In this document: positions 14,306 through 16,088 of the stretch, in pieces
How positions within the stretch are numbered: the first letter of the stretch is position 1
How the letters are laid out: every line of letters begins with the position of its first letter
DNA from: Streptococcaceae bacterium
Lineage (GTDB): Bacteria; Bacillota; Bacilli; Lactobacillales; Streptococcaceae
Length of the DNA: 64,000 nucleotides
Reading direction: 5' to 3'
NCBI GenBank assembly: GCA_902363395.1
Contig: CABIZZ010000001.1
Span: 868,001-932,000, forward strand
Made by a program: the position numbers and the translations under genes
The notes under the pieces: generated by a model
Told to the model about the DNA's origin: nothing
The model's database searches: none
Seen by the model: only the letters and a program-made list of their open reading frames with translations

Positions 14306-15664
14306 ATGTTAAAGAAAAATGAAATTGTAGACGTTGAGATTGTTGATTTGACACACGAAGGAGCAGGAGTGGCTAAGGTGGATGGCCTGGTCTTTTTTGT
14401 GGAGAATGCCCTGCCAGGAGAAGTAATTCGCATGCGCGTGCTCAAGGTCAATAAAAAGATCGGCTTCGGAAAGGTAGAGGAGTACCTGGAAAAATCTCCT
14501 CACCGCAATGAAGAGCTAGACCTGGCTTACTTGCGAAGCGGCATTGCTGACTTAGGCCACCTAGCTTATCCGGAGCAGCTGAAATTCAAGGCCAAACAGG
14601 TCAAGGATAGCCTTTACAAGATTGCAGGAATCTCTGATATCGAAGTGCCCCTGACCTTGGGGATGGACCATCCCGTCCAGTATCGCAACAAGGCCCAGGT
14701 TCCTGTCCGTCGTGTCAATGGTCAGGTAGAGACAGGTTTCTTTCGCAAGAACTCTCATGATTTGATGCCGATTGAAGATTTCTATATCCAAGATCCAGTC
14801 ATTGACCAAGTGGTCTTGGCACTTCGGGACTTGATTCGTCGATTTGACCTTAAGCCTTATGATGAAAAAGAAACATCTGGCTTGATCCGCAATCTGGTGG
14901 TCCGCCGAGGTCACCATTCAGGAGAAATCATGGTCATTTTGGTCACCACTCGTCCCAAGGTTTTCCGTGTGGACCAGTTGATCGAGCAGTTAATCAAGCA
15001 ATTCCCAGCCATCAAATCCGTCATGCAAAATATCAACGATCAGAATACCAATGCCATTTTTGGAAAAGAATGGCGGACGCTTTATGGTCAAGATTACATT
15101 ACCGATCAAATGTTGGGCAATAGCTTCCAAATCTCTGGCCCAGCCTTTTACCAGGTCAATACAGAAATGGCAGAGAAGCTCTATCAGACCGCCATTGACT
15201 TTGCGGAGTTAAGAGAAGAGGATGTCGTGATTGACGCCTACTCCGGAATTGGGACCATTGGCTTATCAGTTGCCAAGCATGTCAAGGAAGTCTATGGCGT
15301 AGAGGTTATCCCAGAAGCAGTGGAGAATAGCCAGAAGAATGCTAGTTTAAACGGCATCACCAATGCCCACTATGTCTGTGACACAGCAGAAAATGCTATG
15401 AAAAATTGGCTCAAGGAAGGCATCCAACCAACCGCCATCCTAGTCGACCCACCACGCAAGGGCTTGACCGAAAGCTTTATCAAAGCAAGCGCCCAAACAG
15501 GAGCCAGTCGCATCGCCTATATCTCATGCAATGTGGCAACCATGGCGCGTGATATCAAACTCTACCAAGAGTTGGGCTATGAATTGAAGAAAGTACAGCC
15601 GGTGGACTTATTTCCGCAAACGCATCACGTCGAGTGTGTAAGCTTGTTAGTGAAACGTGGCTAA
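14306..15664 (+). CDS. rlmD: 23S rRNA (uracil-5-)-methyltransferase, RlmCD/RumA type
   Basis: Methylates uridine C5 in 23S rRNA with SAM. An N-terminal TRAM domain (about 1-60) precedes the methyltransferase core with DAYSGIGTIGLSVA, LVDPPRKG and the catalytic cysteine in YISCNVAT. The iron-sulphur cysteines of the E. coli enzyme are absent, as in the dual-specificity RlmCD of Gram-positive bacteria. I use the ATG at 14306 rather than a TTG nine bases upstream, because spacing from GAAAG is better and homologues begin MLKKN. The last codons (QTHHVECVSLLVKRG) are the segment repeated as scars downstream. Streptococcal mobile elements are known to integrate at the end of this gene. Confidence 0.94.
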   Translation: MLKKNEIVDVEIVDLTHEGAGVAKVDGLVFFVENALPGEVIRMRVLKVNKKIGFGKVEEYLEKSPHRNEELDLAYLRSGIADLGHLAYPEQLKFKAKQVKDSLYKIAGISDIEVPLTLGMDHPVQYRNKAQVPVRRVNGQVETGFFRKNSHDLMPIEDFYIQDPVIDQVVLALRDLIRRFDLKPYDEKETSGLIRNLVVRRGHHSGEIMVILVTTRPKVFRVDQLIEQLIKQFPAIKSVMQNINDQNTNAIFGKEWRTLYGQDYITDQMLGNSFQISGPAFYQVNTEMAEKLYQTAIDFAELREEDVVIDAYSGIGTIGLSVAKHVKEVYGVEVIPEAVENSQKNASLNGITNAHYVCDTAENAMKNWLKEGIQPTAILVDPPRKGLTESFIKASAQTGASRIAYISCNVATMARDIKLYQELGYELKKVQPVDLFPQTHHVECVSLLVKRG

Positions 15665-15766
15665 TCCTCAAAAGGTTCCCCGAACCTTTTGAGTCCCACA
15701 GACGCATCATGTTGAGGCAGTATCACTACTTGTACGAGCTACATAGTAGCGAAGTAGAAGTAGATG
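15632..15766 (+). repeat. Direct repeat A, copy 1 (rlmD 3' end and downstream)
   Basis: Begins inside rlmD at GAGTGTGTA and runs past its stop. It contains a CTCAAAAGGTTC/GAACCTTTTGAG hairpin (15667-15693) and ends in GAAGTAGATG. A copy with about 90 per cent identity by eye lies at 15837-15970. The repeat length is about 135 bp and the offset about 205 bp. Confidence 0.85.
15696..15746 (+). pseudogene. Vestige of an rlmD 3' end, copy 2
   Basis: Read in frame this encodes PQTHHVEAVSLLVRAT and a stop, against PQTHHVECVSLLVKRG and a stop at the end of the intact rlmD. Codon choice differs from the intact copy, so it is an rlmD-type end from another strain or element rather than a simple tandem copy. 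This is what an attachment site left by a mobile element that regenerates the gene end would look like. Confidence 0.8.
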
Positions 15767-15805
15767 CTCCTCCCGTGGGATAGCTGTCGTAGAGTAAGGA
15801 GTTTA

Positions 15806-15844
15806 CGACGAAACGATACGGTAACAGCGAACCGCTGAGTGTGT
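15806..15844 (+). repeat. Direct repeat B, copy 1
   Basis: A 39 bp sequence, CGACGAAACGATACGGTAAC and onward to GAGTGTGT, identical to 16050-16088. It abuts the GAGTGTGT that starts repeat A and marks the junction between successive scar units. Confidence 0.85.
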
Positions 15845-15970
15845 ATGCTTGTTAGTGAAACGCAGCTAATCCTCAAAAGGTTCACTGAACCTTTTGAGTC
15901 CACAAACGCAGCATGTTGTGGCGGTATCACTACTTGTACGAGCTACATAGTAGCGAAGTAGAAGTAGATG
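15837..15970 (+). repeat. Direct repeat A, copy 2
   Basis: Second copy of repeat A, again starting GAGTGTGTA and holding the CTCAAAAGGTTC hairpin (15872-15898). In the rlmD frame its first codons read ECVCLLVKRS and stop, close to the native ECVSLLVKRG. Confidence 0.85.
15900..15950 (+). pseudogene. Vestige of an rlmD 3' end, copy 3
   Basis: In frame it reads PQTQHVVAVSLLVRAT and a stop, nearly the same as the vestige at 15696 with two changes in the QTHHVE segment. It is out of any longer reading frame and cannot be expressed as a protein by itself. Confidence 0.78.
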
Positions 15971-16049
15971 ATCTGCCTATGCGACAAGGTGAAACCGAAG
16001 GTCGAGAAGGTGCCCTCGGGTATATGACTCGCAGAATGAGGAAGGAAAC

Positions 16050-16088
16050 CGACGAAACGATACGGTAACAGCGAACCGCTGAGTGTGT
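16050..16088 (+). repeat. Direct repeat B, copy 2
   Basis: Identical to 15806-15844. After its terminal GAGTGTGT the sequence stops resembling repeat A and the AT-rich accessory genes begin, so this is the likely left edge of the present insertion. Confidence 0.85.

What the first reader, a model, noticed from the sequence alone, without database searches (positions are those of the whole stretch)
15632..16088. Nested scars of the rlmD 3' end: a repeatedly used integration site
After the intact rlmD (ending QTHHVECVSLLVKRG), two further in-frame copies of the same C-terminus with different codons (QTHHVEAVSLLVRAT and QTQHVVAVSLLVRAT) follow at 15696-15746 and 15900-15950, joined by two direct repeats (about 135 bp and 39 bp). 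Each unit looks like an attachment site left when an element inserted in the gene end, restored it with its own version, and was later lost. The end of this methyltransferase gene (rum/rumA) is a known insertion site of streptococcal conjugative elements. The stacking of two or three scars records successive events.
Basis: partly seen in the sequence, partly recalled or inferred. Interest (0 to 1): 0.75.

Follow-up and report, generated by a model that had tools for sequence, protein, structure and literature searches.

The report
Stacked integration scars behind rlmD
Just behind a ribosomal RNA methyltransferase gene in an oral Streptococcus lies a stack of small leftover docking sites, best read as the trace of several mobile elements that used the same spot; shorter stacks sit behind the same gene in about half of the related genomes examined.

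Summary
Confirmed and refined. A site profile built without the window finds five attachment-like sites in the 64 kb at E<0.001, all within 15626-16111, and a weak sixth at 19025-19049. Two kinds alternate: type I sites switch sequence at a CA dinucleotide (15626, 15708, 15912), type II sites within GAGTGTGT (15632, 15837, 16081). The rlmD site differs by one base from the published 18-bp rum core of phage phi-m46.1 (PMC4288039). Of 101 loci (100 fetched plus the window), 50 have two or more such sites within about 1 kb, rlmD's own included. Gene-free segments, and segments of several kb including the macrolide-efflux element Mega, are present or absent between such sites with matching flanks. 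So these are gene-free relics in tandem, like the microCIMEs of S. salivarius (PMC7563491), at a known hotspot: a new member of a known kind. By-product: in 20 Mega copies chosen, all 20 right and 19 of 19 readable left junctions close on CA; exact empty sites hold CA once. That suggests a serine recombinase rather than the Tn916-like coupling proposed in print. Not shown: type II recombinase, order of events, present mobility.

The parts
14306..15664 (+). [quoted passage not shown] its 3' end is the target site
   Evidence: 98% identical to RlmD of S. parasanguinis 886_SPAR and S. xiaochunlingii E24
15626..15639 (+). site 1 in rlmD: type I CA dinucleotide 15626-15627 and type II core GAGTGTGT 15632-15639
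   Evidence: E 4.5e-6; one base from the published rum core
15628..15709 (+). 82-bp unit: rlmD C-terminal codons, stop, perfect hairpin (15667-15693), rlmD-like left arm
   Evidence: units of 81-83 bp present/absent in other genomes
15699..15746 (+). vestige 1 of the rlmD 3' end, QTHHVEAVSLLVRAT*
15708..15721 (+). site 2: type I CA 15708-15709, degenerate core GAGGCAGT 15714-15721
   Evidence: E 1.6e-4
15710..15836 (+). U1: gene-free unit between site 2 and the type II core at 15837
   Evidence: nearly full U copies in 60 of 101 loci
15837..15844 (+). site 3: type II core, left half CGAACCGCT
   Evidence: E 3.3e-5
15845..15911 (+). second copy of the rlmD C-terminus / hairpin unit (hairpin 15872-15898)
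15903..15950 (+). vestige 2 of the rlmD 3' end, QTQHVVAVSLLVRAT*, with site 4 (CA 15912-15913, degenerate core GTGGCGGT 15918-15925)
   Evidence: E 6.8e-4
15914..16080 (+). U2: gene-free unit between site 4 and the core at 16081
16081..16088 (+). site 5: type II core at the end of the stack, joined to the stretch that carries a GNAT gene
   Evidence: E 4.9e-5
16089..26452 (.). cargo between the stack and a downstream glycosidase-like gene found behind rlmD in 44 of 101 loci
   Evidence: GNAT, peptidase S51, Rce1-like (CPBP), nucleotidyltransferase, DUF4336 and non-specific nuclease by Pfam; hydrolase, toxin-antitoxin-like pair, second GNAT, second CPBP, XRE and the glycosidase named from the translations only
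19017..19050 (+). decayed sixth vestige (KVVSLLVQTD*) before the hydrolase-like gene
   Evidence: E 0.22, weak; same arrangement before that gene in L157, L158, L165, L166, L167

Best explanation
15626-16088 is a stack of attachment-site relics (gene-free, microCIME-like units) at the rlmD integration hotspot. Site-specific elements recombined at the rlmD 3' end, supplied a replacement C-terminus so that rlmD stayed intact, pushed the old end downstream, and were reduced to their ends. Two specificities are interleaved: type I, crossing at a CA dinucleotide, shared with the Mega element and, by target site and a closely similar left end, with rum prophages of S. suis, one of which encodes two large serine recombinases; and type II, crossing within GAGTGTGT, recombinase unknown. 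Shown: the sites, where homology breaks, presence/absence of units, recurrence across the genus. Inferred: excision or internal deletion for each unit, order of events, recombinase assignment.
For: Five site-model hits, only here in 64 kb at E<0.001. Published core one base away. 218 strict sites in 93 of 101 loci (a few look like chance matches), 318 permissive sites in 96 of 101, rlmD's own included. Among pairs whose homology ends within 60 bp of the core, 1573 homologous only on the left all end at +5 or later; of 444 homologous only on the right, 189 start at 0 to 4 and the rest at -45 to -1. 293 presence/absence pairs for segments of 81 bp to about 18 kb (blastn flanks at 82% or more, in register within 25 bp), including the window's own 123-bp (one partner, L116) and 244-bp (L126, L160) segments. 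Base -1 of the core varies at type I right ends (T15 C13 G11 A2) as at rlmD (C32 G30 T19 A2) but is only T69/C17 at type II ends. Mega: 20 of 20 right and 19 of 19 readable left junctions close on CA; exact empty sites contain CA once. S. suis phage YS771 has a closely similar left end behind rum.
Against: Sites were chosen by the core and breakpoints beyond 60 bp of it were not counted, so homology reaching the core is partly built in; pairs are not independent. No match to two phage serine recombinases or to the Javan428 tyrosine integrase in the window's 20 kb; other recombinase families were not searched there. In the 101 loci the serine recombinases give long partial matches (25-31% identity) in three (L169, L186, L206) and C-terminal remnants in eight (L128, L131, L135, L136, L139, L188, L190, L212). 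Tandem 82-bp copies (three cores in a row in L138) and right-end repeats of about 155 bp could also change by homologous recombination. Published tandems have the most decayed elements farthest from the target gene; here they are nearest. The type II recombinase is unidentified.
Confidence: 0.78

Rival explanations
1. Tandem duplication of the rlmD 3' end by replication slippage or unequal homologous recombination, with no recombinase.
For: 82-bp periodicity, with three cores in a row in L138; the two composite units of the window are 88-92% alike.
Against: The later copies carry different codons; the U segments are not part of rlmD; the same ends border different genes in other genomes; Mega's junctions share only CA with their targets at the two sites with an exact empty form.
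Confidence: 0.12
2. A working gene-cassette array without its own integrase: small genes with shared ends captured and shuffled by recombinases of passing phages and conjugative elements, functionally like an integron.
For: Tandem small cassettes with shared ends in L165 and L167; a 716-bp cassette present/absent; the same cargo genes in different order in the six loci whose ORFs I printed; Mega behaves as one cassette.
Against: No dedicated integrase seen; cassette ends often contain truncated genes; natural transformation and homologous recombination could shuffle the DNA; no excised form was looked for.
Confidence: 0.25
3. The U units are structured RNAs or folded single-strand recombination sites kept for their own function.
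For: Fold of 15700-15845 has z -4.6. In 25 of 55 non-redundant copies, with my own approximate dinucleotide shuffles, mean z is -2.6 on the + strand and -1.5 on the other. RNAalifold on 48 U1-like copies gives 28 pairs, 95% of cells paired, 9 pairs with two-sided change; no slid control was run for that structure.
Against: No Rfam match at E<=1. The consensus of all 55 copies has only 5 pairs, 3 of them with two-sided change. For the window's own fold laid on the 48 copies, pairs with two-sided change number 9, against 9, 10, 12 and 5 in slid controls; cells paired are 78% against 30-41%, a measure biased towards the reference.
Confidence: 0.08

Closest known systems
microCIMEs / tandem accretion in Streptococcus salivarius (PMC7563491, passages)
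   Same: Gene-free units (130-220 bp there; composite units of 205 and 244 bp here) in tandem behind a target gene, read as decayed integrative elements
   Different: Composite islands there are at rpmG, rpsI, fda and rplL, found by a method that sees CIMEs only beside an ICE, dICE or IME, with the most decayed elements farthest from the gene; here rlmD, gene-free units next to the gene, two interleaved site types
rum/rumA 3'-end hotspot of phi-m46.1 and of ICEs/IMEs (PMC4288039, PMC4701971, PMC5704250, passages)
   Same: Same gene and nearly the same 18-bp core
   Different: Those are whole elements; published rumA ICEs change the RumA C-terminus, here it is restored
Mega, macrolide efflux genetic assembly (PMC4321634, PMC5030221, passages)
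   Same: Its ends are type I ends; its published target TTTCCNCAA lies in the rlmD site
   Different: Mega carries genes; the window units carry none
Integron gene cassettes (recalled)
   Same: Small genes between shared recombination sites, in rows
   Different: No integron integrase or attC was searched for or claimed; the end type points to other recombinases

Membership tests
microCIME | gene-free segment of about 130-220 bp bounded by attachment sites | tested here: met
   core-to-core spans 205 bp (15632-15836) and 244 bp (15837-16080), bounded by sites 1, 3 and 5; 244 bp is slightly above the published range; the ORF list shows only a 63-aa and a 68-aa reverse-strand ORF overlapping them
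microCIME | derived from an ICE or IME by deletion | tested here: inconclusive
   no parent element with both ends of U identified; remnants of serine recombinases occur in related loci
microCIME | in tandem with other integrated elements at a target-gene end | tested here: met
   in the window the neighbour is a cargo stretch, not a recognised ICE or IME
rum attB of phi-m46.1 | 18-bp core at the 3' end of rum | tested here: met
   window 15622-15639 differs by one base from the S. pyogenes reference
large-serine-recombinase element (Mega, type I ends) | short shared crossover dinucleotide, no target duplication | tested here: met
large-serine-recombinase element (Mega, type I ends) | encodes or is moved by a large serine recombinase | tested here: inconclusive
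   Mega's 75-aa ORF has no Pfam hit and no blastp hit to the two phi-SsuFJNP3_rum recombinases, but its last 28 aa are 79% identical to an Erysipelothrix phage site-specific recombinase
integron cassette array | integron integrase and attC sites | not tested
   no integron model was run

The most novel reading that the evidence does not exclude
The rlmD end of streptococci is a genus-wide cassette-capture locus without its own integrase: small gene cassettes, gene-free relics and the macrolide-efflux element Mega share ends of two kinds, are traded at a CA dinucleotide or a GAGTGTGT core by recombinases borrowed from passing prophages and conjugative elements, and Mega is one cassette of this pool that also escapes to other sites.
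Probability: 0.3. Interest if true: 0.75.

Novelty: new member of a known kind. Interest (0 to 1): 0.5.

Why it matters
The stack is a readable record of past insertions at a hotspot that also receives antibiotic-resistance elements. It bears on how Mega moves: PMC5030221 says it lacks genes for transposition, which other elements might supply; the shared CA crossover narrows that to the kind of recombinase that needs only a short shared dinucleotide, and makes it testable.

Tried and rejected
Folded RNA or attC-like function of U: single folds look strong and one consensus fold of 48 copies pairs well, but the window's fold shows no more two-sided changes than slid controls and there is no Rfam match; left as a minor rival. 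U or the element right end as the 3' end of a serine-integrase gene, as at published rumA ICEs: in the one frame translated, stop codons interrupt the 80 codons before the core in the 27 type I right ends and the 26 (of 85) type II right ends printed. tRNA target: none in the window. A composite element of about 38.6 kb behind rlmD in G107 was read for the type II recombinase; it ends in a truncated tyrosine integrase that I name Tn916-like from memory. Further cores in the window's cargo: only the weak hit at 19025.

Caveats on counts: (233 of 284 genomes match) includes rlmD's own 3' end in the query, so weak matches may be rlmD alone. The U profile hits 76 of 101 loci, some only by the rlmD-like first part or the last 34 bp; nearly full copies are in 60 loci. 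The 100 genomes were chosen by me from the listed part (281 of 284 matched), which is sorted by likeness to the window's RlmD; two stretches were cut short by contig ends (L147, L198). The 20 Mega copies were chosen by me from the list (90 of 284 genomes matched).

Full report
What is there. Behind the intact rlmD (14306-15664) the finding's stretch contains two composite units of 205 and 244 bp (15632-15836, 15837-16080), each made of an rlmD C-terminus with stop codon, a perfect hairpin with no run of T after it, and a gene-free segment called U here. A site profile from 313 sites of other genomes finds sites beginning at 15626, 15708, 15832, 15912 and 16077 and nothing else in 64 kb at E<0.001.

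How widespread. RlmD is 98% identical to that of one S. parasanguinis and one S. xiaochunlingii strain, so the window comes from an oral Streptococcus near these. I fetched up to 20 kb behind rlmD from 100 Streptococcus genomes. With the window, 93 of 101 loci carry 218 strict core sites and 96 carry 318 permissive ones, rlmD's own included. The U profile has 152 hits in 76 loci, 81 of them nearly full, in 60 loci. Within about 1 kb of rlmD, 41 loci have one site, 33 two, 13 three, 2 four, 2 five, 5 none, and 5 more have no site at all; the window is one of the two with five.

Why scars. The left halves of 190 of 218 sites fall into three groups: the U right end (..CGAACCGCT, 85), rlmD itself (78) and an element right end (..CTATCACCACACGT, 27). 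They are joined through the core to right halves that in 199 of 218 sites fall into the two clusters that resemble rlmD C-termini. Among pairs of sites whose homology ends within 60 bp of the core, left-sided homology always ends at +5 or later (1573 pairs) and right-sided homology starts between -45 and +4 (444 pairs, 189 of them at 0 to 4); ends farther out were not counted. Segments of 81-83, 123, 124, 126, 163, 244 and 716 bp and of several kb are present in one genome and absent, with matching flanks, in another (293 pairs); for the window, the 123-bp segment has one absent-state partner (L116) and the 244-bp segment two (L126, L160). The base before the core varies at element right ends as it does in rlmD, but not at U right ends, which places the two crossovers differently.

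Known parts. [quoted passage not shown] ICEs and IMEs in rumA with serine integrases are known (PMC4701971 and PMC5704250, passages). Gene-free microCIMEs in tandem are known from S. salivarius at other genes (PMC7563491, passages); a search for the word microCIME with Streptococcus found only that paper. In the published tandems the most decayed elements lie farthest from the target gene; here the gene-free units lie next to it, which does not fit that pattern.

Mega. The macrolide-efflux element is one of the segments: 5509 to 5511 bp in L122, L133, L134 and L139, against 5,511 published for Mega-1 (PMC4321634, passages). I identify it by that size, by the annotation 'putative mega element protein' on its 75-aa ORF in a phage record and by my reading of its two transporter-like ORFs (names recalled). 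In 20 copies from 20 genomes, chosen by me, all 20 right junctions and all 19 readable left junctions close on CA; the left end of L234 was cut by my fetch; six kinds of left flank are seen. The uninterrupted sites exist elsewhere: for one, 46 of 279 genomes, 43 exact; for another, 144 of 279 within three mismatches, 10 exact. Many of the inexact ones lack CA at that place, so only the exact ones count as clean. The ten Mega-bearing genomes at these two sites (five each) show no empty copy of their site. The published view was Tn916-like coupling sequences beside a TTTCCNCAA target, with transposition genes perhaps supplied by other elements; that target lies in the rlmD site. A serine recombinase is inference: the 75-aa ORF matches a phage site-specific recombinase over 28 residues but has no Pfam hit and no blastp hit to the two S. 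suis phage recombinases. Searches for Mega with serine recombinase or serine integrase (3 of 3 and 15 of 33 papers listed) showed no such claim in titles or abstract beginnings; of the listed papers I read passages of PMC4288039, PMC4321634 and PMC5030221 only.

Prophages. S. suis phage YS771 has a left end behind rum closely similar to that of Mega-associated cassettes. phi-SsuFJNP3_rum encodes two adjacent large serine recombinases (Resolvase, Recombinase and zinc-ribbon domains) and carries a U unit 4.3 kb beyond the second. Satellite phage Javan428 carries an element end, the hairpin unit and U near its right end, with a tyrosine integrase at the other.

Beyond the stack. The cargo to 26452 is also array-like: a decayed vestige of the rlmD end (weak by itself, E 0.22) lies before the hydrolase-like gene at 19017-19050, as in five other loci compared, and the 3' end of the CPBP gene is partly repeated just before it. 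The distance from rlmD to the downstream glycosidase-like gene ranges from about 1.1 to 17.2 kb in the 44 of 101 loci where it was found within the stretch.

Verdict. Ordinary in kind, rich in detail: tandem relics of integrative elements at a known hotspot, with an unusually deep stack and a second, unassigned site type. The wider point, that Mega and small cassettes belong to one pool trading ends at this site, is the most interesting lead and remains to be tested.

Noticed in passing
window 18146-18230 and 18861-18945: 84% direct repeat: the 3' end of the CPBP gene is partly duplicated just before the decayed vestige at 19017, consistent with another insertion boundary.
   Followed up: partly
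window 18329-18820: Small nucleotidyltransferase-like protein with a weak Pfam match to aminoglycoside-2''-adenylyltransferase (E 4.8e-5); similar ORFs recur in other loci read.
   Followed up: no
window 20880-21525: Two small overlapping ORFs that look like a RelB/RelE-type toxin-antitoxin pair (from the translation, not searched).
   Followed up: no
L165, L167, L174: Several cassettes end in a repeat of about 155 bp that contains the start of a truncated gene, ADP-ribosylglycohydrolase-like by my reading, fused to the type II end.
   Followed up: partly
L237 (G107 contig 49): A composite element behind rlmD ends inside a truncated integrase that looks like Tn916 Int (named from memory), joined to a site that resembles type I.
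   Followed up: partly
window 15667-15693 and 15872-15898: Perfect hairpins with no run of T after them, just behind the stop codons; some other genomes have a different hairpin-like sequence at the same place.
   Followed up: no
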